Positions 14,301 to 61,720 of a stretch of DNA of 64,000 nucleotides are shown here, one piece after another. The DNA is from Tetraselmis striata (Eukaryota; Chlorophyta; Chlorodendrophyceae; Chlorodendrales; Chlorodendraceae): positions 107,427 to 171,426 of the forward strand of contig VCJN01003585.1 in the NCBI GenBank assembly GCA_006384855.1, in the 5' to 3' direction. A program made the position numbers and the translations under genes. The first letter of the stretch is position 1. Each line of letters starts with the position of its first letter. The notes under the pieces were generated by a model. The model was not told the origin of the DNA. It saw nothing but the letters and a program-made list of their open reading frames with translations, and did no database searches.

Positions 14301-15046
14301 GGCGTCGACTGCGGACCCACAGCCCAAAAAGAAGCACCGCGAGCAGCGCTGCCACGCCGCCCAGGATGGCCGCCAGCAGCACCGCTAGATCTGGCGCGCC
14401 CTGCCCTGCGCTGCGCTGCCCTCCAAGGTGTGCTGGCAGTGGTGGCAGCTTTGCGTCATCGCCCTCCCTTTGCAAGGGCTTTCTCTCCCCGTTGATCTCG
14501 CCTGTGTGGTCCGCAGGAAGAACCGGCAGCCCGCCGTCCCCGCCTCCCACCCCGCTGTTGCCACCGCCGCCCACCTCCTCTCCCTCCTCTTCTTCCTCAC
14601 ACGGGGGCAGCTGCCCATGCAGCCGCTCCCCGGCGTTGCCGCAGCTGCGGCCGAGAAGGGTGTGGCCCACCTCGGCCAGGCAACCCCAGGCAAAGCCGTC
14701 ATAGCGACCGCAGAGCCCCGCATTTCCGGCCAGCGCCCTGGTGGGCGGCGGAAGCAGTGTTAGCCAGCCTTGGTACCGCTACGCCTGCAGCGGTAGGCCC
14801 ACCGCTTCCCCTGATGGAGGAGGTTCCGCTGCATATCACGCGAAAATACCGAAGCGCTGCGTGCTGGGATTCCGTGCTGGTTGTGTGCCTGTATGGTGTA
14901 ATAATGGTAGGATTAATGTGGGGAGCACCTGCCAATATGTATACACATGTATATATATGTATATATGTGTACATGTATATATATGTACATATTTGTATAT
15001 ACATATATACATGTACACACACACAGACACAGACACAGACACATAC

Positions 15047-15104
<58 letters not shown>

Positions 15105-19329: not shown

Positions 19330-21640
19330 CCAGCATGTCGGCGCCCGCCACTACCTGGCAACGGCCCAGCAGGAGCGGGGGGTCTTGGGTGCGGCAAGCC
19401 ATACGGCACCACCCCCACCTCCACGGGGTGATTGTTGTTAACCCCTAAAACCCGTGCCCGCCTGGGTGTGCTGGCACATGGCTGAGCGGGGTGGTCAGCT
19501 GTGGCGAGTCCTCGGATCGTGCGATAACCGGAGGCCTACGTCGGGCTTTTCAAATAATACTCGTGGTCCCGGTAGCGCATGTTGGCGCCGCTCGGCAGCG
19601 CCATGTACGGGGCTGCTAGAAATAATTCATGTACGACCTCGGATGTGCGTCAATCTCTCCGAGATCAGCCTACGGGTGGGAAAACGGGGTACGTACAACT
19701 CGACGGTCGGGGGCAGCCTATACTCGCGGGGGTTGTTCAAAATTGAAATTGATTACAACGTGCTAGTCTGCTGCTCTCCACCGCCCAGACTGAGTTGCTC
19801 AAGGCATGCCATCTCTAATCATAGTAGCGACCACATATAGTGTAATTACAGCTCAGGCTTCCACCCCATCCATCCTCTTTCGTTTCCAAGCCCCGGCTCC
19901 TTCCATCACGTGATCAATAGCTGTGCAATTTATTTTCGGATAGCTACGGGTAGTCGTCAGTACGAGCGACTACCGCTAATTGGCCGTACACGGATTACGA
20001 ATACATAACTCGCCCCACCCCCGAAGAGGGTTTCCCGTACATTTGCAATGCACCGGCACATCGCAATCTTCGGTCGTCGTGCGTTTTGGCTCCACCTACC
20101 GCCATCGCTGAAATATCCCGCAGGTCGCGGCAGTGATCGCCCCACAACGCTGGATGTGGCGGTCCGCCGGCCTCGGCCGCGGTCCGCCGATAATATCTCC
20201 ATCTCGCCCGCCTAAGCTCTTGCGGTAGGATCCCCAAGGGGTTTGGAGGGGGAAAGGCGGGCACCCCCCCCCCCCCCCCCCCCGCCCCCGTCCGCGTGTC
20301 GTCGCTCCGTGGTCGACAGGCCGGTCCTGCTCGCCCGCGCGCCGCTCGCCCCCGCAGCGCGCCTAATCGTTGTAGCCGCCCGTCCAAGGTCAGACCGAGC
20401 TGACCGCCAGCTGACAACTCCCGCTGCATGGCTGCGACTCCCTCAGGGCACCCCGGCTCCTGTCTCTTGGCCCCTGAGTCGCTGCCACGCCCGGCCTCTC
20501 CGGCCATGAACGCCCGCCCCGCCTTTACGTGCCGGGCTCTTGTCTCCTCGCACTCGCCGCCCTCGCCCGTTCTCACGGGACGGCTGAGGGCTTCCCAGGT
20601 GTTCCGAGCGGGTCGGCCGCAGGGCACCGCCGAACACTCCGCTATACTAGGCCGGGATTCGAGTGATTCACAGGTGGAACACATACGGGTGGGGGTCGCC
20701 AGATCTTATGCAGGTCGATCGCGGGTAGTACCGAGGTACGAGAACACGATTTCATTTCGAACATCCCTCGTGAGTAGGCTGCCCCCGTGAGAGTCGTACA
20801 TACTCCCCTCCCCACCCGTAGGCGGATCTCGGAGAGGCCGACAAGGCCCAGGTCGTACATGAATTGTTTTTAGCAGCCCCCCGTATTGGGCCGCTGCCCG
20901 GCGGCGCTAGCAGGCGCTACCGGGACTACGAGTATTATTTAAAACGCCCCCCGTAGGGCTCCCCGGTCGTCGCAGGATCCAAGGACCCGCCCCAACCGGC
21001 CACCTCGGCCCCCTGCCGCACCCAGCCGGGTACGGGTCTTTGGGGTTACCAGCGCCCATCACGTGGAGGTGGGGGTGGTGCCGCCGGGCATGCCGGACCC
21101 ATGATCCTCCGCTCCTGGTGGGCCGTTGCATGGCGGCGGGCGCCGAGGGTTGTTCAAAATAAATTGTGTTGTCGTAGTTTGGTGCGACCCGCCAAGTACG
21201 AGGGGCGTTACAACACTTGGCACAGCCTTACACGGCGGCGGTTGTAAGAAATACAATCGTGCGCGGGGCCCAAGAAGTCGCCCTTGGGCGGTGACCTCGG
21301 CCAAGAGCGTGGGCGGGTGACTGCCGCGTGTGGGACGACCCGGCACTGACTAGTGTGCGGCACAAGATCGGAGAGCATACGGACAGCGGTGCAAGGGGGG
21401 TGTTTTTCCCGCCTTCACCTCCGGACTCCGAGGACGTCCGGGGACACCGTATGCAGCACCTCGAGGCGGGGGCTGATTTCAGAAGCGAGACGGCCAAGCG
21501 GCCTCGCCGCTTGGCCGTGGCCGGTGGAGCGCAGCATTGGAGCAAGCTGCGACTTCCGGGGGAGAATAAACGGCGGAAGCATGCGCATATCCGGCGTGGT
21601 CACGCGTGATCACGGGTTTTCTCGGCCGGACTAGCGTGTA
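19330..21640. repeat. Complex repeat block with inverted copies
   Basis: The segment 19330-19760 is repeated in inverse orientation at about 20640-21140. Shared words include TACGGGTGGG, CTCCGAGATC, AATACTCGT, GGTCCCGGTAGCGC and CACCACCCCCACCTCCACG. The adjoining 21120-21640 has further copies in inverse orientation at about 24120-24500 and 49090-49430; GACTTCCGGGGGAGAATAAA near 21550 matches the reverse complement of GTTTATTATCCCCCGGAAGTC near 49164. No protein domain is visible in any copy. A poly-C tract sits at 20265-20283. I read the block as nested or rearranged non-autonomous elements. Confidence 0.6.
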
Positions 21641-21759
21641 CAGGCTGGCGCCCCTCAGCGAGCGCAGTAAACACCCGTATGACTCACGTGTAGTGCACCG
21701 TAACCCTGATGCAAATCAGTACATGTACCGCAATATAGCCACGTGGCCTAGATAGGCCC

Positions 21760-22680
21760 CGCCCTACGCGCTTCAATTACCGGACCCTATGCGGGTTGGT
21801 CCGGGCCGGGCCTTACATGATGATAGGTAAAGACAGCTTGTGAAGCAGACGAAAACTTGATTCGGTTGTAACAAATTTCAACTTCAAATCTAAAGCCATG
21901 TCGTGGCTTCATGTACATGCCTCTAGCACTCTTATTCCCACCGGTGCAGCAATGTGCACAGTAACCGGCACGTACATCAGTTATATTGGCGTCTAGACCA
22001 ACTTCATGAAACACATACATACCGTCATACCAAAGCTCAGTTGCAAGTCTGACGCTGCGTCCCCATGGGCCGAGTTTAGTAGGTAACATCCAGTTGGAAT
22101 AACACTGAATTGCACAGCAATTGCACAGTGTTTGCATGCAATTGTCCATAGGAATTAGCGCAACCCTGCCATGCATGCTTGATAAGATCATCGTACTTTG
22201 GCCCGGACTGCTGGGTGCGGCGCATTTCTTCCAATAACTCGCATTCTCCGTAGTGACTTGGCACCGAGGCGGTGTGTTATTATAAGTGCCGTTTATCAAT
22301 ATCGGTATCATCTTGCCCTCTGTCGGTAGACACGAAGGGGGACAGGGAGAGAGGGGGCGGTAGGGGGGCAGGGAGAGGGCGGGGGAGAGGGAGAGCTATC
22401 AAGAAGCGACCGCGGCGATATGCCGCGTCGGTTTGGAATGACGTTGCTACACTAGTAGAAGCATGAGGAATGTCCGCCAAAGAGTAATAGGGTACGGGTA
22501 GGTTCGGTAGGGGGATTGCAAAAAACAAGAAGGAAAATGCAAAGGACGCGGGTTCCGCCCATTAGATGAGGGGCCCGGCCTTCTGAGGGTTGCACGCTAC
22601 GCATTATTGAATATTCGTGGACCTTATGCGGGTTCGTGCCGCTGGGCCATAAGACAGCCAACATGTGAAGCATCAAAGAC
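21760..22680. repeat. Dispersed repeats, two families
   Basis: 21760-21820 and 22570-22660 share a block with GGACC..ATGCGGGTT(C/G)GT and GGGCC.TA, also present at 6560-6640 and inverted near 48530 and 50480. 21843-21900 holds the reverse complement of GAAATTTGTTACAACCGAATC, also found near 23876 and 48459. A minus-strand open frame of 174 codons (21787-22311) spans this block. It has no domain I recognise and its start is doubtful. Confidence 0.5.
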
Positions 22681-30845: not shown

Positions 30846-31974
30846 CTGTATGCCAAGAATGCAATACAAGTGCCGGTATTTCAGATCTGAAGTCGTGACA
30901 ATGATCTCATGAAATTCTTGGGGGACGCTTTGCTTTTTATTTATTGAGCAGTTTTCCAGGAGTGAACGTACTGCGTATAATATATTGTTTTACTTTTAAA
31001 TATTGTTTCTCGTGGGGCCAGGGCCATCATATAAGGCACCAGGCCCAGTTGGACCTGTCCCGGATCCCGAAGCGGTGGTCACCCACAACGAGCTCATTCC
31101 ACGGTTAAATGGGTTTGGTAGATAGGCAGGCCCGCACCTGTCCCCTGGGGCGGATACCCTGCGCTCTCGCTGGGCGAGGGCACCTTGATGGCCCGGCGGC
31201 CAGCGCGCCTCCAGCCACCAGAGGGCACCGACTGAGGGAGATCGCCGCCATCGCGTACGTGCCGATCGTACGTGGGCCCCACGGGTAGAGAAGGAGACAC
31301 TACCGCGTGTGACCTGGCAAGCGCTTCGACTGCGGGCCAGAAATAGTAATGACTGCTGTTGAGTGCCACTGGAGCAGTGAAGCACCTCCACAGCGGAACC
31401 GCACGGCACGAGCACACGCCTGTGGGGCACCCTTCTTACCGTACGCGGTACCCGCCCAACTCGCCGCGAGCAAAATACATCCGACGTGGCACGCTGAATG
31501 GATCAATATATTAGTCGCTGTACAGTTGGCATATCTCAACACAGTATAGCACGTAACGTACCCTGTCGCCTGGATAGTTAACACTTAACAGTAGGTCGTC
31601 ATCCGGGATAAAACAATTATTTCGCTTGGATAAAACGACGGGTGTAGCGAGTGTAGCGCTAGAGGGATTGAACGTTGCCATGCTGCGGTACATATTCGTA
31701 CAGATACGTAAGCGTACACTCGCGAACGTACCGCCGGCGCACCGACGCGCGGCGCGACCATCGTCGATTCGTCACACGCACAGCGCCCAGCGGCGGCTTT
31801 CTAGAGTACTCGCTCATCAGGATAGAGTGGGGCAGCCAGACGCCCCCTCACCTGGCCTGCTCAGTCTGAACCTTCGCTGACTGACTTGCCGTACACTACA
31901 ATACGCGTGCAGTTTAGCCTGACTTGCTGCACAGCGACAGCGTTTTTCAATTCAGCGGCGTTTCAGTACTGGAG

Positions 31975-32451
31975 ATGGCGCGCGTGGTGCTGAGCGCGGC
32001 CGGCTGCCGCCCGGCGGTCCCCTCTAGGGCCGCTCAGGCCCCCCGCCGCACTGCCGCGCTGCTCCTGCCGCTGCTGTCCCGACCGGGGACGCATTCCCAC
32101 TACGCATTCCGGCAGGCGAACGCGGTGGCGCTCGCTATCCCGGTCTCCGGTCCTGGGCAGCAGCCCGACGCTGGCGGCGACTCCGGCGGCGCGGACGGCC
32201 AGATGACGGCGGAGCTGATGGCGACGATGACGTCGAAGATCGGCGAGGCGCTGGAGACGGAGAGCGTCAACATCGTGGACGTGTATGGTGACGGCCGGCA
32301 CGTGAGCATCGACGTCGTGTCGGAGCTGTTCGAGGGCAAAAGCTCCATGCAGCGCCAGCGGCTGGTGTACAAAGCGATATGGTTCGAGCTGCAGGACGCG
32401 GTGCACGCGGTGGACAGCATGACCACCAAGACACCTACGGAGGTGGCCTAG
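31975..32451 (+). CDS. BolA-family protein, organelle-targeted
   Basis: A single uninterrupted frame of 158 codons from ATG to TAG. Residues 1 to about 75 form a basic, Ala/Arg-rich targeting region ([20 protein letters not shown]). The rest is a complete BolA domain: helix [15 protein letters not shown], loop [20 protein letters not shown], helix [15 protein letters not shown] and the conserved end [15 protein letters not shown]. The RH in the loop and the His of VHAVD fit residues that bind iron-sulfur clusters together with monothiol glutaredoxins. In plants this subtype occurs in plastids, alone or fused to SufE. The role is inferred as iron-sulfur cluster handling or redox regulation. 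It is the only intronless gene here. It is divergent from the FKBP gene and convergent with the next one. Confidence 0.92.
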
Positions 32452-44131: not shown

Positions 44132-47100
44132 ATGAAGCGCATCAGAGCACCTGTGCCGGCGTTGCTGCTGGCCGTGCTCGTCGTTGAACACGCCGCGGGG
44201 CAGCAAGGGACGCCGCCGCCACCAGCCAACTGTACCACCCCGACCGGCGAGGCGCCGTGGTGCGCGTCGCTGGGAGGCGTGCTGTGCAGCGCAGAGGGGG
44301 CACCTAGCACTCGATACAGAATTTCGTGCCCATCCACCTGCCGAGCTTGCGAGGTGCGTTTGCGGCTGCTGTTCCCGCTTCAAAAGGACGGCGAGGGGAA
44401 ACTCGCATCGTTTGCTGCGCTATGGCGACAACTTGCTCCTTGGTTACGAGAGCGAAGTTGTGCCCGATGCGCGCCAAGCTTGACAATCATTTACATTATC
44501 TGGGGAAAATAGCGACATATCCGCTTGACCACCCATCTTGACGCGTATTTTGCCCGCTGCGCGTGTAGCCCTATGATGCAGCGGTGGCGGAAGCGTTAAA
44601 GACGGAGCTCACGTCGGAATTCCGCACCGGGTTCGTTCTGACTGCAAACCCGGACGAGGATGCGCTGGTGAGGTCCAGGCTGAGGGGCTGGGACACCTGG
44701 CTGCGGTACACCGGTGCCGACACCGTCGGCATCCCTGTCGGCAACGGGTTTGTACGGATTAATCACACGTCAGTGGTTGCAACCTCGGATGTTGGCGCGC
44801 CAGACTGTGCCGAGTACGCGCGCTTGGCACAGACCCTCATCGGCGACCACAAGGCGCGTAGCTGGCCCTCCCCGTCATTCCATGCCGCGCTCCTGGCCGA
44901 AATGCTGGTAGGATTGCTTCTTGATCTCTCACTAAGTTCTCGATATATATCAATGCCACTGCGCTGCGCTGCAGATCCAAGCCGCCGTCATCACGCACAA
45001 CAACTGCAAGACCCAGCTGTCGCAGACCTATCACGAAGGCGGGGTCCTCCACCTTATTCAGAGCGGGACACCCATGACCCTGCAAGATGGCAGCGAATAC
45101 CTGAACAAGCACTCTTGGTAGGTCGCTGCGCAAGCCTCTGCGTCTGGCCTCTCTGCAGCCACCTCCCTATGCGTCCCAGCGTAGTCTTGCTCACCCTGAG
45201 CATGCTTGTGGCTTTCCTTGCATTGGCCAGGTTCATGCACTTGGACTCCAATGAATACCCGCAACTCTTCCTGCAAAGCATGTCCCGCAAGGGACATCGC
45301 AAGGTCGCAGTGTTGTGGCGTGCATCGCACCCTTGGACGTCCTCCTCCTCCAAGTGCGCGGCTGCATGCTGCTCCCGCTGGCTTTGTGACGAGAGAGTGC
45401 ATGGGCCAGCGGCACGTGCCTTGTGCATTTTGGGCCGCTGACAGAGCTACCAAACGCCCAGGTACATCATCGACAACTACATCAGCAAGTACAACATGGA
45501 GCTCGCCTACGCGGACTCCTACGAGCAGGGCGCGGGCAGCATCTCAGGTGCAGATGACGAGTATCTGGAGCTGTACGACACAGGGGTGTGGGACGCCATG
45601 CTGCAGGTGGTTCCTGCTGGCCGTGGCACTTCTCTGCAATTGCAGGGACAGGGGGGGAGGGTGTGCGGTGGGGTCATTGGCTTGGGAGGGGGTGGATCAA
45701 ATGGATGTATACTCGCCTGCTACTGCGGATGCAAGTTACCAGCAGCAGCAGCAGCAGCAGCAGCGGGTTCCAGTGACCCTGCCTAGTGATCCATGAAACC
45801 CTGCCTTGGCATGTGTTTCTTCGACACGGCACAACCTGTGGAGCCCCTCACGCTACTGCCCCGTCTCCCCGCGCTTGCCTTCCCGCAGGAGGCTGCGGAC
45901 TCCGGCGCAGAGGTGCTCGTGGTGTACTGCATCGGCGAGGGCGCGTCGATCCTGAAGCGCATGAAAGCGCTGGGCATCAGCTTTGAGGGCGTCTTCATGA
46001 CAGTGTCTCCCACCTGGCCCACCTGGCCTGCTCTGATGGGCACAGACGGCGACTACGTGATCACTCCGGCGCAGTGGAGTGAGAAGGGGGTGACTCCCTG
46101 CGACGTGTTTGGCTCATCGACGGAGTATGCTGCTGTGTACGAGAAGTTCAACAACCTGGCCGCAGAGTACACTGCGGCGTCGTTTTCTGCCGCCGGCGTG
46201 ACCTTTCAGCTGGCGATTCAGGAACAGGGATCCACAGACCCGGAGAAGCTCCTGGCTGCTATCAAGGCCATGTCGCGCGATACAATGATTGGGCGCCTGC
46301 GCTTCTCGTTCGCGCAGCGCAACTTCGGGCGCCCTCCGGTTGGGCTGCAGCATCAGGTCCGCTGGCGCCAAAAGGGGGGGGGGGGGGGGGGGGATATTCA
46401 CTACCGGGTTCATAGGGATGTATTGACTTTGCTGATAAATGGCGAGGCTATTTGGTAGCCAGACAACCAAATTATCCTCTGAGATTCATGGCACAAAAAC
46501 CGGTTATGAAACCAACCCTATGTATATGATACTGCTAAGATAATAAAATCTAGCCACCTTCTAGTACGGGTGCCAGCACGGCAATAATAAAAACACTGCA
46601 AATGAGAACCGGCCCTGCATGCCAGAGGTCAGATGTAGACGAGACTATAGCGGAAACTATGGCGAAATGTTTTTATAGATCGTATGCAAGCACAATTTGA
46701 GGCTTATGAGAAAGGGTCTTTTAAGCGCCCCGGCACCACAGGTAAGGTGCTTTCGCATAATAGCCCGTAGCTCAAGGGTGTGAATGCTTCAAGTGCATAT
46801 GACAGACTGAAGTGCACACTATCCACCGGCTTCACCGCAAACACAGGAAATCCGCCATTGCGCACCGCATGACGCAAATCGTGCTGTGCTCCCATCGCCG
46901 CAGAACGGAGTGAGCTATGTGGTGTATCCTGAGGCTATGGCACAGACGTCCGTCCAGCCGTTTGTGGACTGGGGATGTCGCGAGTTCTTCAAAGCCCGTA
47001 GCCAGCAGTGCACGGACGATCAGCTGGCCACACTCCGGCGCTGCTCTGCCAAATACAGGGGGCTGCAGCTCATTGCTGACGACGCGTGCTCTATCAGTAC

Positions 47101-50100
47101 CGGCAGTGGTGCCTCCAAATTCCAGGTGAGCGCTCCTCCATTGCGCCACACACCTGTCCACATCCACATCCACATGCACGTCAACCGGGGGGGGGTGGGG
47201 GGGGGTTACCATACATGCTGAGTAAATAAACGCATGTACAGCACACTGTTGCTGCCATACCATCTGCTCAGCAAAGGCATTCAACTTCCGTCTCTTTTTC
47301 CTGTCATAATTTGTCGCTGTTGATGGCAGACTGCTGTCGAGGCACCATTTCAAAAACAGTCCATCCCTTATGCCATGCACGAGACTGATTTTATATTGGG
47401 TGGGGAAAGTTTCTATATAGCTCTAAGTAACAGGCGCTCCGGAGAGGCCCCCTTGGCGCGAGTCGTTTACTTGCTCCGACTGCTGATGCTGGACGTTGAC
47501 GATCTTGCTGTGCCCATGCCCCCCTCCCCCCTTTGGCCAACCGTGTGCTTGGCGGACTGCAGGAGGCAGATGTACCCCGGCCCGCGGGCTCACCGAGGCT
47601 ATCAGGTGGCATCGCAGTGGCGGCCTCAGTCGTGGTGGCAAGCCTGCTTGCAGGCGTTGTTTACTGGGGAGTGCGCAAGTGAGTGAACCCCTCCGCCTGC
47701 GTGAGATGCACTGTCTCCTGCGATCATGCGCATGCTGGTCAGATGGTGCCAATCCTGTCCAGTTCTGTCTCCATTGTCTCCTGTCCTCCATCCTGTCCTC
47801 ATCTGTCATTCTATCTGTCCGATTTCGTGTTTCTGCTGCATTGAATTTCAAATTGAGGCAGCCTTTTGGTTCCCCCTTCCGACCTGAATAGTTTGATTTA
47901 CGCACGTGCCGCAGACTCGGCACACGCTTCTGTCAGCACTCGTGCTGGTGTGAATTACACAAAGCGCGCGGCTAAGAACGAGAAAACTACCGCTAAGTAC
48001 CACATTACTCGTACTCGCAGTGTACTACACTGCCATTACCTAGATTAATGACATCAGGGCTTTCACAGAAGCGCACTACAACAGCGCACTGCCCTTACCT
48101 TCGACACCATTAGCGCTACCTGAGACACGGTTGGTGTGCGCGTCTCATAGTAATTACCGCGCACACGATGTAGTTTGTGCATCAGGCTGTGCGTCAGGCT
48201 GCGCACGGCGGCAGTACAGCAGTACATACCAAAGTACTTATCAGTATAATCAGTAATAATGATGATTAGTTCTAACTATAAGTATTTTTCTAACTCGCGT
48301 TTACGTAAGAAGTACTACAATCACTCCGCCATCAGGGTTATTTATCATCAGGGTTTGGTATATCGGGATTATTTGTCTGATTGTGTACCAGCAGCAGTAT
48401 GAGTCGTGGCGGTTCCCGTACTCATGCTCTCAATTAGTAATTAGTAATTTGAAATTTGTTACAACTAAATCAAGTTTTCGTCCTGACAAGCTGTCTTTAC
48501 CCAGCATCGAAGAAGGGCCGCTCCTGTCCGACCCGCTTAGGGTCCGCTATAATTAAAGCGCGTACGGCGGGGCGTCTGTTGGCCACGTGGCTATGTTGCA
48601 GTACATGTTCTAATTTTGCAGTGGTAGGTACGGGGCATGCGAATCCTTAAGGATACCGCGCAAAACGCACCAGGCACTGGGTACCCACATGGGGATTTGT
48701 GTGGTACATATCCTTACACTCCACCCCCCCCATAGGATGGAGGACCTCCTCCAGCAACGTTTCGGCTTGAATTCGGTGGCGATCCGTATTAGCCGGGTCG
48801 TCCAACATTGCGGGATATCATATTATTTTATATAGTCGCTATGTTTCTCCGCGGGATCGAACCCGGATCCCCGTGCGTAGAAGCACCAACTGTAAGGATA
48901 CCGCGCAAAACGCACCAGGCACGTACCCACATGGGGATTTGTGTCGTACATATCCTTACAGAATCATACGGGGGATTACACGCGTACAGGGACACCAGCT
49001 GTGGGGAGAAGGTGTGAGGGGCAGCAGGGTTCAGCAAGGCATAGCGACTGTATATCGCGAGGCTGTAAATCCTTTCGGGTACAGGTACCTGTACGCGATA
49101 GCAGGCCGCCCGCAGAAACCCTTGATCACGTGACCGCCCCGTTTATGTGTATGTTTACGCCGTTTATTATCCCCCGGAAGTCGCAGCCCGCCCCATGTTG
49201 CGCTCCACCGGCCACGGCCTAGCAGCGAAGCCGCTCGGCCGCCGCGCTGCTGTGATCAGCCCCCGCCTTGAGGCTCTACCGGTGGCGTCCCCGGACGCCT
49301 GGGAGTTCGGAGGTGAAGGCGGGGAACCCCCCCCCCCCCCCCCCCCCCCACCATATGCACCGCTGCTTGACGCGCTGCCGGCGGACTCCCTCTGTGTTAA
49401 AATATACTCGAAGCGGTAGTATAGGCGGGCTGTGTCGGGACAGTAGCGCTACTTACGGCCTTCGGGCCGGTTCAGGCCCGCGCGCCAATTTCCAGGAATA
49501 AGCATCTATAGAACCCGCAATTTGGCATCAAAGCCGAGCTGGCATCTTTTCTTTGCCGATGTCCATAATATCCCGACATGGTTTCGGAGCATGTTCGCGA
49601 GCTGAAGGTTTAGGGTCTTAGGGTTTTCTCGAATCCTCGTATCGAATCCTGCCAATAAGGCCATCTTTCGAGACTTCATCTCCTCCGTCTACTCATATAT
49701 CCGGTGTAGGACTGACTTCTGCCGTACTTTCCGGTGGTCGAGACATAAACTTCCCAACTCAAGGCGCAAGTGCGGATAATTCCAGTGATAGGTGTAACAA
49801 TTATATCCGAGTACGATATGCTACAAGTTAGTACCTGTGAGTAATAGTACAATGTGTACCTGTGCTTACGGGTATATGCACCGTATAATGCTGCCATGTG
49901 GGAAGCGTTGTGGTAACGAATCATTTTTGTATCGTCAAAACACTGAAGCCTCTCGTCCTTGCACCACCACTGCATACCACCTTTGTTTGTTTTGTTCCCC
50001 ACAGTCTCTAAGCGGTTGAGACTGCCGCATAGTGTTCAAGTCCATGTATCTCTACACGGACTTTCCGGTCCTCCCTCATCCCCTCGGAGCTAGGAGAGGT

Positions 50101-53100
50101 GTTGGGACAATACTTTGCACAGTCCTATGGTATGGTCCACGGGCCGGTTTAGGTAGTAAATTTCCGGGAATGAATATCAACAGAAACGGCGATGCGGCAC
50201 AATAAGTGCGACACATTTTCTCTGCTGATAGTTTGATAGTTCCCGTATTATGTATCATGATATAGCGACCTATATGCTCTATTATGTTCCTCGGTATTGT
50301 AAAAATTGCACTATGGGCGCACTTTTGGTACCATTATACTGCTTGGTATGACCATCTAAGCAATTATCAACAGCGCACCTAAATACAGATTACGGAAATT
50401 GCTTGAAATTTGAAATTTCTTGCAGCTTTGTTCCAGCTCAGTCTACGGTGCTAAACAGAAGGCAGCTGTCATACGGCCACACGAATCCGCACAGGGTCCA
50501 CTAATTAAAACGCGTAGCGTGCAGCCCACTGACATATGCCAGGTTTATGAAGGATTATGCTCGCGTAGCTGTAGCAACAACTAACTCATGACGACAGTAA
50601 AAGACTCGTCTAGTAGTGGTTCAAAGTCACCCCGTTTATATTAGGCAGCGCAGAATACAGACATGCATATGGGAACTGTCTCGCATCTAATTCGGAATAT
50701 TTTTTTGGCTTGGACTAGATTAGGTATATCATTGAACATTTTGTTATTGTAATGGAAATACGGAGATGGGTATTATATACGTGCTTACTATGCTGTGTTT
50801 ATAACGGCTGGCAATCCATCATACTTTTGTGCTTTGTGATGGGGCAATGCACGTGTGGCTTGGCCCGCGTGGCTCGGACTCTCAACCGGGCGCGCGTCAC
50901 TCATCCATCCCGCCTCATGTAGGATGCGCGCCGCTCTCAAGCGGCTTGTGTTTATCTTTTAATTCTGCTGTTAGCGCTGGATTCGTTATTGGCCTTTTGT
51001 AATTCACCACACCTGTACTGGCACCTGTGGCGCGATTTATTAGTACTTGGTATTCGCTGGCCGGGACAGGACTAGGGACAGGACGCGTCGTTATTCTGCT
51101 GCCCACACGGTGAACATGTACATTAATATACGGATTGGTACATTGTATGTGCCCAAATACGGGTAGGAAAAAGACATCACCTTAAAGGCACACTAAATAG
51201 AATGAGACTGTCTCGGAGTTGTGATCTGGGCGACGGACACGCGCACGCATGGAAGACGCACTAGTGAGTTTGCTATCACTAAATTTTTAATTTGATATGG
51301 AACATCAATATTCAAACATGTGTTGGCAGGGAAAATTAAACAGGGAGGTGATGCGGTGATTACCTGCTGAGAGAATTCACAGGCTGCTTTTCAACTCCTC
51401 TTGCCCTCCCTGTTAGGTCGCACACCATTTCTGATACTGCGTGATGTATAACTGTACACTAACCCCCGTCTCCTGCGTGCGTAGGAGGAGGCAACAGGAG
51501 CTGGCCAGGGATACCCCCATGGTATGACGTGCCAGCGCGTTCACTTAGGGGCTGGTGCTGAGGGGGGAGGACCTGTGTTGCCATCAGTCTGGTCACAATA
51601 TTGTTTGAGGTAGGGGCGTGCACGGGCAGCTCCCGGCACATTGCTGACATACTGCTGACCTGCCGTGCCGGATTGGTCACCAGTCTGATGGGCCGGACTT
51701 CAAGGCGGAAGGTACCATGGGAGGGGGTGCTGGCAAGGCCGTCGTGCGGGAAAGCAGAGCGGTTCAGAACCTCAATTCCAGATCCAGTTTCAAGGGCATC
51801 GCGTCCGACAGTGCTAAATCGGCTCAGGAGGGAATGGAAGTGGACGTTGAGGAACTCATCGGGAAGGGCGGCGGCGGAGTCGTCTACAAGGGTGCGCCCC
51901 TGCCTGGGACCCAGCGCATGAGAACCTATCCTATAACCCCGGTAGCTTGCTGTATCAAAAAGAAACAAATCAAGGCGGGTGCCAATGCACCTATGAGACC
52001 CTATATGCTGTGCCTGCAATCGGGGTCGCACCAAATCTACGGCTGCTGACCTAAGGCGTTTTCTTACAGGAAGTGACATTTATTCTGAAAGAATACGCCC
52101 TGCCCTGCATGGGTCCAGTCTGGACATATACATCGATGATAGATTATGTCAGTCAGTCATTTGACACGTCCTACCCAGAAACTTATATGGATGATATACA
52201 GGCCATGACAACACGGAATCTGGGGGGGGACTTTGGCAGAATATGTGTACCTTGTGATGGTGCTACAGCACATGAATACTATGGAAAGAAGTACAAGCAC
52301 CATCACTACGGGCGCGGCTATGCGGAATCGGTACGGAAGTGGGAACTGTTTGCCGGCACCCGAGACTGAGAGCAGGTTACGGTGGTCAAAACGCCACGCC
52401 GGCACCCGTGTAGGAACATTTGCTACGTAGTGTGTGTGCTGATGTGTGGCACCATACAGGTTTAATTGTATTTTGCGGTAGTCGGCAGTGGGACAGCGAA
52501 ATAGGCTTCATGAGGGCTCATTGGTCCTGTGTTGCCGCCTGCCTCCGCCTGCAGGGATGTGGCACGGCGTGCTGGTGGCCCTCAAGATCTGCCGCCTCCC
52601 GGTGAAGGACGAGGCGCAGGGCAGCGAGGCGCAGGAGCTGTTCACCATGGAGTCGGGCATCGGCGAAGCGCTGCGGCACCCAAATGTGGTGCAGCTCTTT
52701 GGCTCCTCCGTCGCCCCTGTCACGCGCCAAGCCTACAAGGAGGAGCAGCAACTGGAGGTGGCGGAGGACTCATACAATGACGTGAGTGTGCCACCACGGG
52801 GCAACATGCATGCGGCCAGGAATATCTGCAGCCTCGCCTCGCCTGTCAGCCCCTTCCGCATGCCCCTATCTGCGAGTCCTTTGAGTGGGGATTACCAATG
52901 CAGGACTTTTACGGTCTGTCCTAATGGGCATATTACGATTACCGATCGGGCGTTGAACAATCACATGCCCTCTCGCGGTAGGAGCATACTCTTTTAGTGC
53001 CCTTTGTACATGATCAATCAACCGTTGCTTTCTTGCGTTCAACACCTCTAATGGCACGGTAGATCACGTACAAGTCTGGTGCATTTTCGTTCACATTATC

Positions 53101-54652
53101 CCACTGGCTAGGTGTGCGTGTTAAGTTCCGCCTTTGGGGGATGCTACGGTGCACTGTGCATTTCTACTGATTTTCTCTGTTAATTTGATCAAAAACCGTC
53201 AGCACAGATGGCTGACGCCCCCCCCCCCCCCCCCCCCCCCCCCTTGGTCTGCCTGCAGGTGTCGTCACGGGGCCTGCCCAAGGATGAGACGGACGACGCA
53301 CGGGTCGTCCTGTGGGAGGCGCGCATCATCCAGGAGTATTGCTGCCACGGGGACCTGCGGTACGCGCTCAAGAAGGGCAAGCTGAAGGGGCAGAGGATCG
53401 GCGAGGACGGGAAGGCCTCCCCGCCGGACCGCGGCACAGCGCTCCGGTTGGCCCTGGATGCCGCGTCCGGCATGGCTTACATTCACACGAAGAAGGTACG
53501 CAGCGCGCTGGCTGCTGCCCTGTGGCACGGCAGCCGTCTCACGCCCTGAGCTGCTGCAGATTGCATCATTGCCTTTGCGTCACGAGCTGAGCGGTGAGCT
53601 GAGCTGCGCGGCGCCCGGCGCGTGACGCTGCAGGTCATCCACGGCGACCTCAAGGCGTCCAACATTCTGCTCTCCGACCGCCCCTCGGGGTCCTTGCTGG
53701 ACTGCCGCTGGATGGCCAAGGTCGGCGCGGCCGGAACTTGGCTGCTGATACATTGACGGCAGTGCCGATGGATTATCGTGGCGTGCTCTGGGCGAATGGC
53801 TTTCCCCCTCTTGTTGACTCTGCCTGGTCACCAAGCCCCCCCCCCCCCCCCCCCCCCCACCTCCCACTGCGCTGCAGGTGTCTGATTTTGGACTGGCGAT
53901 GGTGATGGACAACGACGTGAGCCACGTGTCCGGGGTTTTCGCGGGGACCATCACGCACAGCGCGCCGGAGTGCCTGCGCTCCGGCCGGCAGAGCCAGGCG
54001 GCGGACGTCTACGCCTTCGGCATCCTGCTCTACGAGCTGTTCACCGCCAGGTCGGCGTACCCCGGCAAGTCTACCGTGTGGATCATCAACAACGTGGTCA
54101 ACAAGCAAGCGCGGCCCGTTTTCCCGCCGGACACCCCGCTGCCCGTGCTGCAGCTCTTCAGCCGGTGCACGCACCACGACGCCAGCCTGCGGCCAACCAT
54201 GGACGACGTCTGGGTGTGCGTCGACGCTTTGCTCACCAAACACAGCGCGGACCCGATGGTGCGAGCTCCCTCCCCCCCTGACGCGCCGAGCGGCAGCCGT
54301 CACTGCTATCGCGACAGGGGAATGCGCAGTGAACGTTTTCCCTGCCTTTCGGCGCTTGAGAGCGCAATCTTTGCCGCCTCCGCAGATCCGCTGCGGCAGC
54401 GAGACCCGTCGGGGCCGGCGAGTCGTCTCATCCGCAAGCACCAGCAGCCTAGTAGCATCGCCAGGCAGTCGGCCGGGGTCGCAGCTGGGCGACGGTCCCA
54501 GTCGCGGAGCCCCACGGAGGAGCAGCACAGCGGTGCAGCTGGGATGTGGCACCTCGGGGAGGACCACGCTGCATGCGCCCCCTTCCCCTCTGTCTCTGGT
54601 GTCATCCAACGGCGCCCATGCGGTGAGCACCGCCAAAGCCAAGCAACCTTGA
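44132..54652 (+). CDS. Receptor kinase: ShK-like module, periplasmic-binding-like ectodomain, one span, TKL kinase
   Basis: Fourteen exons: 44132-44353, 44569-44907, 44975-45117, 45462-45606, 45889-46356, 46904-47125, 47563-47678, 51485-51521, 51684-51891, 52555-52781, 53259-53495, 53634-53720, 53878-54258, 54386-54652. They total 3,099 nt (1,032 aa) and every phase agrees. Residues 1-23 are a signal peptide. Cys34/44/52/66/70/73 form an ShK-like module (CPSTCRAC). Residues 75-500 resemble a branched-chain amino-acid-type periplasmic binding protein (type I fold), seen best in GAEVLVVYCIGEGASILKRM, MGTDGDYVITPAQW and DTMIGRLRFSF. The span is near 527-548, followed by KRRQQELARDTPM. The kinase has IGKGGGGVVYKG, VALK (Lys644), HGDLKASN (791-798, Arg replaced by Gly), DFG (820-822) and SAPE (845-848). 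A Ser-rich tail ends at TGA. Likely role: binding a small solute outside and signalling inside. The ligand is unknown. The 37-nt exon 8 is what links span and kinase. Confidence 0.86.
45736..45764. repeat. CAG trinucleotide microsatellite in intron
   Basis: About nine AGC/CAG units in the intron after exon 4 of the receptor kinase. Frames reading poly-Gln, poly-Ser or poly-Ala through it are not coding. Confidence 0.9.
46600..46745. mobile_element. MITE-like repeat, truncated copy
   Basis: It contains CTGCATGCCAGAGGTCAGAT, GTAGACGAGACTATAGCGGA and TATGCAAGCACAATTTGAGG followed by CTTATGAGAAAGGGTCTT, matching one arm of the foldback element at 10665-10935. It lies in the intron between exons 5 and 6 of the periplasmic-binding receptor kinase, so both receptor genes carry this family. 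Confidence 0.6.
48648..48718. mobile_element. Short terminal-inverted-repeat element, copy 1
   Basis: A 71-bp sequence starting TAAGGATACCGCGCAAAACG and ending GGTACATATCCTTACA, nearly identical to the copy at 48891-48960 apart from an insertion (GCACTGGGTACCC against GCACGTACCC). It lies in the 3.8-kb intron between the membrane-span exon and the 37-nt exon of the receptor kinase. Confidence 0.7.
48830..48890 (-). repeat. tRNA-like fragment
   Basis: On the minus strand GGTGCTTCTACGCACGGGGATC runs into CCGGGTTCGATCCCGCGG, a good pol III box B and T-arm. The tRNA 5' half and acceptor are missing. The short element at 48891-48960 abuts it at the position where the D-arm should be. It is not a working tRNA and its body differs from the SINE at 35314. 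Confidence 0.5.
48891..48960. mobile_element. Short terminal-inverted-repeat element, copy 2 (70 bp)
   Basis: Perfect 10-bp terminal inverted repeats, TGTAAGGATA and TATCCTTACA, bound a 50-bp interior identical in most positions to copy 1. No target duplication is obvious. The size suggests a very small MITE or a recombination site rather than an autonomous transposon. Confidence 0.75.
49090..49430 (-). repeat. Dispersed repeat with C22 tract
   Basis: Inverse relative of 21370-21640, sharing CGGAAGTCGCAG, TTGCGCTCCACCGGCCACGG, ATCAGCCCCCGCCT and TCGGAGGTGAAGGCGGG. A C22 tract follows at 49329-49350. It is intronic in the receptor kinase. The rest of this intron (49440-51480) is AT-rich with no exon I can support before 51485. 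Confidence 0.6.
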
Positions 54653-55259
54653 AAGACCCAACCACCGGGGTTGCGTAAGTACTCTTAGCTTGTGTTGCTC
54701 ATCTTAATATTAAAGCCGACGTAATTCGGGTAAGTGACCCTCAGAGTTCGAGTAACTTCTGTGGGTCACTTGAATGCAAAGATAGGTGAGGTGCCCTTTT
54801 AAAACTTAACCTACGAATGAAACTTAAACTACGCCAAATTAAGTTCGGTTTGGCATAGACACAGCATACCATAACCCAGCCACCAAATACATATGTGATG
54901 ACCGGGAAACCGGCGAAAGTTGACGTAAGTTGCCTGAAGTCTGTGCATGTTTGCCGCTCTATTCCAAACGAAACTTAACTATGGTTACGCGTTATAAAGC
55001 GGAACCCTAAAATCCCAAACTTTAAAAAACGCCGTTATTAAGTTAAGATGTCTGCTTCAAATGGACTACGCGCAACCCGGCCAACAACACCGATGAAAGT
55101 CCTAAATGAACTACAAGGGCTTTCAGGTAGTAGCGAGTATTTCTGTAGTTAGACTTTTGTCTTGACTTGATGATGCTCACCGGAGCAAACGACACATTGA
55201 ACTTGCTGGGACTGACCGGTGGTGCATGCTCTGTATGTGTGTGGCATCTTTCTGCACAG

Positions 55260-55455
55260 AACTCGTGCCTGTCCTTTACGGATCTCGGCAATGACAATGA
55301 CGACGGCAGCGACGACGATCCGGACGAACATGACGAGACCAACGATGAGACATTTGTCATACAGATTCCGAAGGCGAACGATGCGGACGCGGGCGACGAC
55401 GAGAATGACCGCGCTGGCTGGGCTGCTGCTGACGCGGATGCTGCCAACAGGGTAT
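55260..55455 (+). CDS. Possible acidic exon of an unidentified gene
   Basis: A strongly acidic stretch (FTDLGNDNDDGSDDDPDEHD, then NDADAGDDENDRAGW) is bounded by a credible acceptor (CTTTCTGCACAG, ending 55259) and a credible donor (AACAG/GGTATGAGT, near 55450). No neighbouring exon was found and no family recognised. The opposite strand is also open and rich in Ser and Val, so strand assignment is uncertain. Confidence 0.25.
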
Positions 55456-56129
55456 GAGTTTTGTGACTTGCCGTTTTGAGTATGAGACTACAAGGAGCCG
55501 GCATCTGCTGGCATACATCAGCAGAAGATGAGTCCCCACATGCAGACACCTCCGGGGAGTAAGGACAACTCTGCCGTTGAGGCGAGGGGATGGTACTAGT
55601 TATTTGTGCAAGGCTGTAGAAACAACCAGACAGTTCTATTTATCCTTTCCACAGTGGATGCGCGTGGTCTCACATCAATAAGGGCACTTGCTGGTGGAGA
55701 GTTTCGCTGTGATGGTGGAGCGTGAGGTGCCAACTGCAACCATTTGACATTGCCGATAATGAATGCTTTTTATCACACAGTAGTATAGCAGCCCAAAAAA
55801 GTTTGTGCATGCTGTTTATCTATGCGCAGTTGTGATTGAGCTGTTTGGAGTTCATCGTCTCACGTATAATCTGCACCGCTGCAACCATGACGAGGAATTT
55901 CACGCGAAGTTGGGCACATGGTGCGCAGGGGCAATTCAACATGTATGTATATCAGAGTGCCTGAGGCACATACTACGTAGTGAACACAGAAGTGCCTTAC
56001 GGGCGGTTGCAATTCAAAATAGCTCCGGATTTGGTTGATTATTTGAGCAGCCCACCAAGCCCAATAATCGACTCGGCACAAGGGGGCGCTGGTTTTCCCC
56101 GTGCCTGCCGCGAGATGTTTGAAGTGTCA

Positions 56130-58970: not shown

Positions 58971-60556
58971 TTTACTGCACGCCTGGTTTAGGATCGGACG
59001 ATCAAGAACCCCCCCCCCCCCCGCCATCCCCGGGTCCCCGGGAGGACAAGCCCTGGGCGGCAGGCAGGACAGAAAGCGGTGCTCACCGGAGGCTCATCTC
59101 GATCTCATAGGGCGTGCCGCCCGGGCGCCGCCGGACCTCGCATGGCCGCGTGCGCGCCGTGAGCGTCTTGCTGCCGCGGTCGCGCTGCGCGGTGGTGGTG
59201 ATCACGACGCCGGCGGCGAGGCGGCCGATCTCCGCGTCGCTCAGCGCTGCCGCGGTGCGCACCCAGTACGTCTTCGGGTGGCGCCCGCCGGAGCGGCCCA
59301 CCGCGTTGGGCACTCGGCCGTCCGAGGTGAGCAGCAGCAGGCCGGTGGTGTCCTTGTCCAGCCTGCCCACCGGGAAGACCCGCTCGCGGTGCCCGATTTC
59401 CGCAACGACGTTGCCCCTCACGCGCATGTCCGTGGTGCTTACCACCCCCGCCGGCTTCCAGTACTTTATGTACACAAAGCGCTCCTCGCCGGGCACGGTG
59501 CCGTCCCGCCCGTGTCGAGGCTGGCCCGGCGACTCGGCGGGCGGAGCGGCGGAGGTGGGCAGAGCGTGGGCCGCTCCCAGGACATTGAGCCGCTCCCAGT
59601 CCACGGCGCGCCCGTCCAGGGTGACCTCCGCGCCAAGTGCCACCTGAAGCGAGGGATCAGCGCAGGCCGTTTGCCTGTACATGTCATGCCACATCTATGA
59701 TATGGACTCCCTCATTTCGTTGCTTGTTTTGGGTCTATCAATGCATGTTTAGATGATTGTTGTGTATTGCCGGTGTTGCTCCTATGGGTAGGTGTGACAT
59801 CCACCATCTACGGTACGGAACTTTCTGCCCTCCAACGTTTACAGCGTGCAGGGCCATTAATACTGACTTCGGATCAGTGGCAGAGGTCAGGGTCAATAAG
59901 TACAGTCCCAGGCTCCGATTCAGCACAACGCGAGTTGCCCTTGCAATGCCAAGACGCCAATGCGCCCAACCTCGCCTCGTGTTAGCTGCTTGCAAGATGC
60001 TCGGCTGTCAAAGGACGACGCGCGACGGGCCTAGCCGAGCCTATGCTGATGCACGAAGTCTGGGTGCAAGGGAGCTAGCCTGCGGTGCTGCTCAGGAACA
60101 AGTTGGAACACAACACGACGTTTCAAATTTCCATTTATTTGGTTGCGCTAGCCGCTGGGTGGGGTTGCGGTCCATGGCGGGCATAGCCACCGCACGGACC
60201 TGTTCCCCCGGCTGCGCCACTCGGCCGTCCACCTTCACCCGCCCCTCCGCGACGAACCTGTCCGCCTCCCTCCGCGACGCGAAGTGGCGAAAGCACTTGT
60301 TAATCCGCACCGTCGGCGGGCCACTGCTCGCGCCGCCGCCATCACCGCTACCGCCGCCACCGCCGCCGCCGAGAGGCCAACCGGTCGCGAGCGCGGCTGT
60401 CACTCGTCTCGGTGCGCGCAGACGGATGCACCCCTCGCGCCGCAAGAACCTTATTGCTAGACTTCCATCGGCCCTTCGAGGTAGGATATGTTGGGAACGC
60501 GGCGGGGGAAGCAGCGAGGCCCGGACCCCGCTGCTGTGGAATGCCGCCGCCGACAT
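58192..60556 (-). CDS. Pseudouridine synthase of the RsuA/RluB family, organelle-targeted
   Basis: Four exons: 60556-60200, 59643-59087, 58647-58596 and 58434-58192, giving about 402 aa with phases agreeing. Residues 1 to about 80 are transit-like (MSAAAFHSSGVRASLLPPPR) with a Gly run. An S4 RNA-binding domain spans the first junction (VRINKCFRHFASRREADRF, VKVDGRVAQPGE, LDGRAVDW). The catalytic domain has IKYWKPAGVVSTTD and the active-site motif GRLDKDTTGLLLLT, whose first Asp (in RLD) is the nucleophile of the family. It continues with KTYWV and, over the short third exon, EGRNRQIRRM. The last exon gives LHRVGVLSITLRGLRPGQW. It should convert uridine to pseudouridine in organelle rRNA. The C-terminus is uncertain: an alternative frame in the last exon (EELTEADLREAERSL) looks more protein-like than the Gly-rich tail, so there may be an extra splice or a frameshift. 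Confidence 0.88.
58776..59025. repeat. Homopolymers and AC microsatellite in intron
   Basis: The intron between exons 2 and 3 of the pseudouridine synthase holds a GT run, a G19 tract at 58781-58799, an (AC)19 run at 58930-58968 and a C12 tract at 59011-59022. Confidence 0.9.
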
Positions 60557-60649
60557 CGCAGGCGTGGCTTTGTGCCTCGAAATGTGAACAAGTCGCACAT
60601 TTAATAACCCAGACGAGTAGCGCGACTCCGTCCGCCTGGCAGCGATGAG

Positions 60650-61720
60650 TGTGACTGTAGTAAAGCCCCAATTTGAATTGGTTTTAGATTGCTGCGCGGG
60701 TCATCACACTTTCTGCGGGATTGCCGATGGCGCGTCACTACGGGAATAATTTCCCAAATTCTCGTGAATCCTTTCTCCGTACCGGTATTGGTACGGCTAA
60801 TCTGCGACAAGCGATGATATCTGTGACGGGCCACTTTTTTGTTTTCGGCCGGGACAGGACTGGGAACAATGAAACCCTTGCAGGGCGGGTCTCTACGACG
60901 GCCGTTTATGCAGTAGTGAATTAGTGATCCAGTTGCGGAATTTAAAAGCGATGGGGAGGCGCACCAGAAAAGGCAATAGCGACTAATGATGTGGGGGAGG
61001 GCCCCACGCCATAATAACTGGAAAAATCCCCATCCAGTAAAATTGAGGGTGCCGTGAGGCGGTGAGAGGGACCCCGCCCATAACAAGGCAGTTAATAAGT
61101 CCTCAGGTGTTAACGCAACAACCTGACTGAATAAAATCCCTGAACTCCGGAACTAACAACCCCAAATTATGCTGGCGGTGATACCCCCACCGCGGGCACT
61201 CCACCAACATATGGTCGATATAGTCTCAGATGAACTTCCGCCACATGCAGGGCAGTGTAAAAGGAACCGCTCATGCATGGTTTTGAATCTGGGCAAATCG
61301 GCGGGCAGTGGGAAATACTCGGGCGCGTAGTTGTATCGTATTAATGTGCAGCCCAGCCACAACCCCCGCGGGGACACCCACACCGTACTGTGGCAACGGG
61401 TTATTTGACGCATATTCGGGCCAATATTCGAATAGAACACGGATCTCACCGAACACGGATGATACCGCTAGTCGCTACTCGTCATCAATGCGGCGACCCG
61501 CCGGATGGGCCGCCGCCAGTAGTCGCTAGTGGAACGGCGGACCAGACGACATATTCAACCACCTGTTTGAAGTGTTTTTCGGCAAGTGATGACACATTCC
61601 AGGTAGCACGAGATACCGCGTCAGAGGCCAGCAAAAAGGCGGTTCGAGTAGCACGTCGGATTCCGGCAAGGACCCGGCGAGTGACGTTGTGGCACTCGTG
61701 GCGTCGTTGCATGCGGTCGC
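60650..61720 (-). pseudogene. Degenerate LINE-type retrotransposon 3' end
   Basis: On the minus strand near 61275-61180 a frame reads FLLHCPACGGSSSETI and, after a one-base shift, DHMLVECPRWGYHRQH. Together these give C-x2-C...H-x4-C, the zinc-binding motif found after reverse transcriptase in many non-LTR elements. Upstream frames (61485-61712: RRATRTAFLLASDAVSRATW) are open but broken by stops at 61490 and beyond. The frameshift and stops show that it is dead. The reverse transcriptase core is not visible. Confidence 0.4.

What the first reader, a model, noticed from the sequence alone, without database searches (positions are those of the whole stretch)
44132..54652. Receptor kinase with a bacterial-type periplasmic-binding ectodomain
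Seen: 14 exons whose phases all agree give one 1,032-residue frame with signal peptide, ShK-like cysteine module, a domain matching branched-chain amino-acid-type binding proteins, one span and a TKL kinase. Known: this fold serves as an ectodomain in animal natriuretic-peptide and glutamate receptors and in plant GLR channels. Inference: fusion to a plant-like TKL kinase is unusual and may be an undescribed algal nutrient or metabolite receptor class.
Basis: partly seen in the sequence, partly recalled or inferred. Interest (0 to 1): 0.88.

Follow-up and report, generated by a model that had tools for sequence, protein, structure and literature searches.

The report
Algal receptor kinase with bacterial-type sensor
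A green alga carries a gene for a cell-surface protein that joins an outside domain of the kind bacteria use to catch amino acids to an inside signalling kinase, a layout like that of the Venus kinase receptors of invertebrate animals but built from different parts.

Summary
A deposited model, TSEL_044913.t1 (P0001, 1,111 aa; by its label from the green alga Tetraselmis striata), equals letter for letter the translation of 16 exons at 44132-55457. It encodes a signal peptide, a six-cysteine module, a type-I periplasmic-binding (Venus-flytrap) ectodomain, one membrane span and a TKL kinase with its catalytic motifs, HGD replacing HRD. Ectodomain: Pfam Peripla_BP_6 E 8.5e-11, above its cut-off; no ANF_receptor hit. 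Against a profile of 14 binding proteins it scores 97.9% over 352 columns; 10 controls reach at most 6.6%. Most likely mechanism (inferred): a small extracellular metabolite, perhaps an amino acid, closes the flytrap and changes kinase pairing. No second member showed among the hits of three word-limited protein searches; the own-genome search did not complete, so 'class' is untested. Weak points: no transcript evidence seen for junctions 8-10, an N lobe without its own significant match, and few LivJ ligand residues kept. New variant of a known kind.

The parts
44132..44200 (+). exon 1 start and signal peptide (aa 1-23, approximate)
   Evidence: hydrophobic N-terminus, hydropathy 1.64 at aa 4-22; cleavage site inferred by eye
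44231..44350 (+). six-cysteine ShK-like module (aa 34-73) in exon 1 (44132-44353)
   Evidence: Cys spacing pattern only; no Pfam match at E<=10
44569..46356 (+). exons 2-6 (44569-44853, 44975-45117, 45231-45353, 45462-45606, 45889-46356): most of the type-I periplasmic-binding ectodomain; Peripla_BP_6 match aa 155-446
   Evidence: Pfam PF13458 E 8.5e-11, 42.5 bits against a cut-off of 31.7; hhalign 97.9%
44854..44974 (+). GC-AG intron 2
   Evidence: deposited model P0001 reproduced exactly; higher and longer Pfam match when spliced
46904..47125 (+). exon 7: end of the binding domain and Cys-containing stalk (C487, C498, C509, C524)
   Evidence: hhalign match runs to P0001 aa 475
47563..47678 (+). 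exon 8: stalk, single membrane span (about aa 551-571, 47605-47667) and basic stop-transfer residues
   Evidence: hydropathy up to 2.29
47679..51484 (+). intron 8, 3,806 bases, between span and kinase; carries repeats, two of which (48446-48616, 49088-49336) have a second copy in reverse at 21395-21884
   Evidence: leave-one-out donor and acceptor scores: about 2.5% and 1% of unused GT and AG sites of the window score as well
51485..51521 (+). exon 9, 37 bases, needed to keep the frame
   Evidence: intron 9 sites are weak (27% and 49% of unused sites score as well; intron 3, 21% and 56%, is similar)
51846..54210 (+). TKL kinase domain (aa 642-951) in exons 10-14 (51684-51891, 52555-52781, 53259-53495, 53634-53720, 53878-54258)
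   Evidence: PF07714 E 1.5e-40, PF00069 E 8.7e-34; motifs GKGGGG 647, VALK 664, HGDLKASN 814, DFG 843, APE 869
54386..55457 (+). exons 15-16 (54386-54622, 55260-55457): Ser-rich then acidic C-terminal tail, stop at 55457
   Evidence: P0001 reproduced exactly

Best explanation
TSEL_044913 is a single-span receptor Ser/Thr kinase of Tetraselmis striata. Shown by sequence: a domain related to the bacterial hydrophobic amino-acid (Liv/HAAT) binding proteins follows a signal peptide, one span follows it, and a TKL kinase with its catalytic residues comes after the span. Inferred: the binding domain faces outward; a small extracellular metabolite, most simply an amino acid or a related nitrogen compound, binds in the cleft and closes the two lobes; the closure changes how two receptors pair; and the juxtaposed kinases phosphorylate each other or start a MAP3K-like cascade. 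It would thus work like an animal Venus kinase receptor, assembled independently.
For: Deposited 16-exon model identical to the window's translation. Peripla_BP_6 above its gathering score, kinase E 1.5e-40. Profile comparison 97.9%, 352 columns, 10 controls at most 6.6%. Topology: signal peptide, one span. GC3 0.786 for the whole coding sequence and 0.754 for exons 1-8, with seven introns among those exons: a host-adapted eukaryotic gene, not bacterial contamination. Of the 61 loci of the nearest bacterial family I looked at the neighbours of 3: L001 and L004 have two Liv-type permease genes (L004 also a Liv-type ATPase), L041 at least one. Of 12 LivJ positions printed, 2 are identical, T102 (T201) and D121 (D222). 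VKRs show that this layout can transduce amino-acid binding (PMC2680970, passages).
Against: I know of no ligand, dimer or kinase assay. The N-terminal lobe alone gives no significant profile match (0.16%), only the C-terminal lobe does (97.9%). Ten of the 12 LivJ positions printed differ, among them S79 to N179 and E226 to T344, though the alignment is uncertain there. HRD is HGD. No spliced transcript and no second species' copy was seen.
Confidence: 0.6

Rival explanations
1. Two neighbouring genes were joined by the gene model: a membrane-anchored binding protein ending inside intron 8, and a separate soluble TKL kinase starting near 51717.
For: If intron 8 is not removed, exon 8 reads WGVRK and then a stop. 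An in-frame ATG in good context lies at 51717 (sequence). The intron is 3.8 kb and the others are 108-663 bases. Intron 9 sites are weak: 27% (donor) and 49% (acceptor) of unused sites score as well. The model joining them is a prediction whose evidence I could not see.
Against: Intron 8 sites are strong, phases agree, and the 37-base exon 9 supplies exactly the missing frame. Weak sites also flank intron 3 (21%, 56%), inside the ectodomain. The intron's length is partly due to repeats with a second copy in the window. Signal peptide - span - kinase is a sensible topology, and a deposited model makes the same join.
Confidence: 0.12
2. The fusion is real but the ectodomain no longer binds a small ligand; it serves as a dimerisation or peptide/partner-binding module, as flytrap domains do in natriuretic-peptide receptors and at the N-terminus of glutamate receptors (recalled).
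For: Ten of 12 printed LivJ positions differ; the N lobe is diverged; the alignment shows insertions in the second half of the domain.
Against: The C-terminal lobe is well kept, and 3 of 3 examined loci of the nearest bacterial family (of 61) hold Liv permease genes. The column of LivJ E226 has also changed in the Chloroflexota-type rows and in P0082 (P0085 has a Glu one column away; LivK keeps it), so its change does not prove loss of binding.
Confidence: 0.25
3. An ordinary orphan among the many lineage-specific receptor-like kinases of protists: a chance domain shuffle with no conserved role.
For: No other protein of this order among the hits of three protein searches, by the Pfam column as printed. 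Receptor-like kinases appeared several times in evolution (PMC3019232, passages). A second receptor-type gene with LRR and kinase pieces lies in the same window.
Against: An intact 16-exon frame with kept catalytic motifs suggests selection; the searches reach only relatives sharing exact 5-residue words.
Confidence: 0.3

Closest known systems
Venus kinase receptors (VKR) of invertebrates (PMC3703292, PMC2680970)
   Same: Extracellular type-I flytrap domain, one span, intracellular kinase, in that order.
   Different: VKRs carry an insulin-receptor-like tyrosine kinase and an ANF-receptor-type (PF01094) flytrap, in most with a conserved Ser66; here the kinase is TKL-like, the ectodomain matches Peripla_BP_6 and not PF01094, and the residue aligned with LivJ Ser79 is Asn179.
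Bacterial hydrophobic amino-acid ABC binding proteins (LivJ/LivK; Chloroflexota family of P0084)
   Same: Homologous binding domain, clearest in the C-terminal lobe (GSTDPEKLLAAIKAMSRDTMIGRLRF region).
   Different: In bacteria a separate partner of a transporter; here fused to a kinase. Few LivJ ligand residues kept.
Bacterial Ser/Thr kinase with C-terminal Peripla_BP_6 (P0046, metagenome)
   Same: A Peripla_BP_6 domain and a protein kinase domain in one protein.
   Different: Order reversed (kinase first) with a region matching DUF6923/DUF5074 in between.
Binding-protein-headed multi-span receptors of protists (P0082; diatom class C GPCR-like proteins, PMC3727952)
   Same: A bacterial-type binding domain used as ectodomain of a large membrane protein.
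   Different: Several membrane spans (P0082, by eye) or a 7TM domain (diatoms), and no kinase among the Pfam matches of P0082.
Plant GLR channels and animal glutamate/natriuretic-peptide receptors
   Same: Flytrap ectodomain (general knowledge).
   Different: Channel, G-protein or guanylate-cyclase output; no channel or cyclase family among the Pfam matches of P0001 at E<=10.

Membership tests
Venus kinase receptor | extracellular Venus-flytrap domain | tested here: met
   Peripla_BP_6 E 8.5e-11; hhalign 97.9% over 352 columns; by sequence only, no 3D model could be made
Venus kinase receptor | single membrane span between ectodomain and kinase | tested here: met
   one hydrophobic stretch after the signal peptide, about aa 551-571
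Venus kinase receptor | flytrap related to ANF_receptor PF01094 | tested here: not met
   no PF01094 match at E<=10 for P0001; criterion from PMC3703292 passages
Venus kinase receptor | insulin-receptor-like tyrosine kinase | tested here: not met
   best solved relatives are MLK4 and MAP3K9; no insulin receptor among the 60 rows shown of 1,108; loop HGDLKASN
Venus kinase receptor | ligand-site serine (VKR Ser66 / mGluR1 Ser165) | tested here: inconclusive
   Asn179 aligns with LivJ Ser79; that LivJ Ser79 equals VKR Ser66 is recalled; low identity
Liv/HAAT-type periplasmic-binding domain (PF13458) | score above the curated gathering cut-off | tested here: met
   42.5 bits against 31.7
Liv/HAAT-type periplasmic-binding domain (PF13458) | both lobes present | tested here: inconclusive
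   whole domain aligns over template columns 34-402 of 412, but the N lobe alone gives only 0.16%
Liv/HAAT-type periplasmic-binding domain (PF13458) | amino-acid ligand residues of LivJ | tested here: not met
   2 of 12 printed positions identical, T102 and D121; which positions touch the ligand is recalled
TKL kinase | kinase domain with catalytic residues, TKL-type similarity | tested here: met
   PF07714 139.6 bits over PF00069 117.5; G-loop, VALK, HGDLKASN, DFG, APE; top three solved hits MLK-type, though Src-type, BAK1 and EGFR rows follow closely; no kinase tree was made
ShK toxin-like domain | Pfam ShK match | tested here: not met
   no match at E<=10; only the cysteine spacing fits
Plant GLR / ionotropic glutamate receptor | ligand-gated channel domain | tested here: not met
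   no channel family among the 5 Pfam matches of P0001 at E<=10
An algal receptor class (several members) | paralogues or orthologues with the same order | tested here: inconclusive
   none among the hits (word-limited; candidate lists capped in 13 and 15; Pfam column cut in some rows); own-genome search not answered in 14 calls

The most novel reading that the evidence does not exclude
A green-algal lineage captured a bacterial amino-acid-binding protein domain and coupled it to a TKL kinase, making a one-span nutrient (organic nitrogen) receptor kinase that arose independently of animal Venus kinase receptors: direct sensing of dissolved amino acids, perhaps of bacterial partners, by a kinase in a phytoplankton cell.
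Probability: 0.25. Interest if true: 0.75.

Novelty: new variant of a known kind. Interest (0 to 1): 0.55.

Why it matters
How green algae sense dissolved organic nutrients at the cell surface is, to my knowledge (recalled), largely unknown. A receptor whose ectodomain belongs to a well-understood ligand-binding family makes that testable: the domain can be expressed and screened for ligands, and the kinase output measured. If it proves to be an amino-acid receptor it would be an independent invention of the flytrap-kinase layout outside animals and choanoflagellates, and a candidate for algal-bacterial communication.

Tried and rejected
Own-genome search for paralogues: the genome search did not answer in 14 tries, so copy number is unknown. 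Viral origin: no match to six short peptide patterns of P0001 in viral contigs and no megablast match of 44132-55457 in phage records. Tandem copy in the window: tblastn of P0001 against the window finds, apart from the gene itself and chance-level pieces (E 0.67 and above), only a kinase piece at 10248-10337, E 1.5e-4. Transcript proof through the protein collection: P0083 (94% identical over 15% of the query) looked like a relative but reads straight through introns as the genome does, so it is genomic DNA of the same gene or a near-identical strain and says nothing about splicing. Influenza haemagglutinin rows in the solved-structure search (E 0.41 and above) were taken as chance. The profile search of solved structures with alignment A3 is dominated by its 18 bacterial rows and was not used as evidence for the algal domain. 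PADLOC lists 27 defence-kinase families, the best mad6 at E 9.1e-59 over the kinase; NCBIfam's MAD6 model gives 68.7 bits against a cut-off of 460, so I read this as general kinase similarity and did not test it further. Papers: the listings (titles, starts of abstracts) showed nothing that I recognised as a binding-protein TKL receptor in algae; one search had 156 papers, 10 listed; the library holds only openly licensed PMC papers. Papers seen: PMC3703292 abstract, passages and section 8; PMC2680970, PMC3727952, PMC12716839 and PMC3019232 passages; all others, including those, search listings only.
Full report
What the sequence is. A search with residues 24-1073 of my first model returned one near-identical protein, P0001, labelled eukprot jgi/Tetstr1/458507/TSEL_044913.t1 (98% identity over 99%). 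I read Tetstr1 as Tetraselmis striata, a chlorophyte of the class Chlorodendrophyceae (lineage; the reading of the label is mine). Splicing 16 window exons gives exactly its 1,111 residues and a stop. My first 15-exon model kept 18 extra codons at that GC-AG intron; without them the Pfam match grows from 37.7 to 42.5 bits and from profile 143-323 to 55-323, which supports the deposited splice independently of its maker.

Parts. Residues 1-23 look like a signal peptide. Six cysteines at 34-73 have ShK-like spacing but no Pfam match at E<=10. One hydrophobic span lies near 551-571. The kinase, 642-951, has the glycine loop, VALK, HGDLKASN, DFG and APE; the arginine of HRD is glycine. It scores higher with PF07714 than with PF00069. 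Among solved structures (1,108 at E<=1e-10, 60 shown) MLK4 and two MAP3K9 entries come first, then a Src-Abl ancestor, BAK1, EGFR and many Src rows, so TKL fits, while 'plant-like' is not specially supported. No kinase tree was made.

The ectodomain. Pfam gives Peripla_BP_6 at E 8.5e-11, above its cut-off, and no ANF_receptor at E<=10. NCBIfam's branched-chain binding-protein model reaches only E 0.075, far below its cut-off. The single sequence against the PDB finds a Leu/Ile/Val-binding protein first, weakly, at E 0.0029. A profile of 14 binding proteins (LivJ, LivK, P0084, P0085, part of P0082, part of P0046 and eight of the 61 loci) aligns with residues 74-545 at 97.9% probability, E 5.3e-13, over 352 columns, template 34-402 of 412. 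The controls were the kinase region, the reversed ectodomain and eight shuffles: 10 of 10 stay at or below 6.6% (the highest, one shuffle, E 0.0055). The N lobe alone gives 0.16% and the C lobe alone 97.9%. So homology is secure for the domain and the C lobe; the N lobe is carried by its position in the alignment, not by its own score.

Relatives. With the region 40-600 scored inside the full-length protein, 2 proteins reach E<=1: P0001 itself and P0082 (E 0.022), a 1,748-residue protein with a Peripla_BP_6 head and, by eye, several spans. With the ectodomain alone, 3 proteins reach E<=10: P0083, unspliced DNA of the same gene; P0084 (E 0.0044); and P0085 (E 4.7, chance level by itself). P0084 led to 61 bacterial loci, by their titles mostly Chloroflexota with some Deltaproteobacteria-type and Sorangium records. 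I examined the neighbours of 3 of the 61, scanning 10 open reading frames: L004 has two Liv-type permeases and an ATPase with the BCA_ABC_TP_C tail, L001 two permeases, L041 at least one permease. In the full-length search 81 proteins reach E<=0.01; apart from P0001 the one row with Peripla_BP_6 in the Pfam column, as printed and in places cut, is P0046, a bacterial kinase with the domains in reverse order. These searches need shared five-residue words, and searches scored capped candidate lists, so a diverged orthologue could be missed.

Ligand. Of 12 LivJ positions printed (mature numbering), 2 are identical in the alga: T102 as T201 and D121 as D222. The positions I recall as the ligand site, 79, 100, 102, 121, 150, 202 and 226, align with N, S, T, D, W, C and T. 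The column of E226 is also changed in the Chloroflexota-type rows and in P0082; P0085 has a Glu one column away and LivK keeps it. An amino-acid ligand is therefore plausible by family and neighbourhood, not shown by residues.

One gene or two. For one gene: the deposited model; strong intron 8 sites (leave-one-out scores equalled by about 2.5% of unused GT and 1% of unused AG sites of the window); agreeing phases; exon 9 of 37 bases restores the frame. Intron 8 holds repeats whose second copy lies at 21395-21884, which helps explain its 3.8 kb. For two genes: intron 9 sites are poor (27% and 49%; intron 3 is similar, 21% and 56%); unspliced intron 8 stops at once after WGVRK; a well-placed in-frame ATG lies at 51717. 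I put two genes at 0.12.

Mechanism. Shown: domain order and kept motifs. Inferred: outward-facing flytrap, ligand closure, change in pairing, kinase activation. [quoted passage not shown] PMC3703292 passages and section 8). It is not a member: the ectodomain is not of the PF01094 type and the kinase is not insulin-receptor-like. Binding-protein heads on diatom class C GPCR-like proteins (PMC3727952 passages), GPCR-TKL fusions in choanoflagellates (PMC12716839 passages) and the repeated appearance of receptor-like kinases (PMC3019232 passages) show that such shuffling is not rare in protists.

Verdict. A real, intact and unusual receptor-kinase gene, most likely a small-metabolite receptor working like a Venus kinase receptor but independently assembled. 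New variant of a known kind; interest 0.55. It would rise with transcript proof, a ligand, or a set of paralogues.

Noticed in passing
window 8859-17610, minus strand: Pieces of a second receptor-type gene: a leucine-rich-repeat match (15797-16315, E 3.4e-7), a hydrophobic stretch (within 14119-14778, by eye) and kinase pieces (10059-10484, E 9.3e-8; 8859-9467, E 0.037), suggesting an LRR receptor kinase about 27 kb from the gene described here.
   Followed up: partly
window 47679-51484 and 21395-21884: Intron 8 shares 79-80% identical stretches with a reverse copy 26 kb upstream and has a 71-base, 94% identical direct repeat (48648-48718, 48893-48960): probable dispersed mobile element.
   Followed up: partly
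   Followed up: no
L004 47-2570 and L001 141-2153: A sensor histidine kinase (in L004 with a response regulator) lies upstream of the binding-protein and Liv permease genes, hinting that this bacterial binding-protein family may itself serve signalling.
   Followed up: no
P0046 (metagenome protein, 1,030 aa): A protein kinase ending in a Peripla_BP_6 domain after a repeat-like region: a bacterial-type counterpart with reversed domain order.
   Followed up: partly
window 31918-32451 (+), 59083-60700 (-): Ordinary neighbours: a BolA-like protein (E 2.7e-12) and pieces of a gene with S4 (E 1.8e-7) and pseudouridine-synthase (E 1.8e-11) matches.
   Followed up: no
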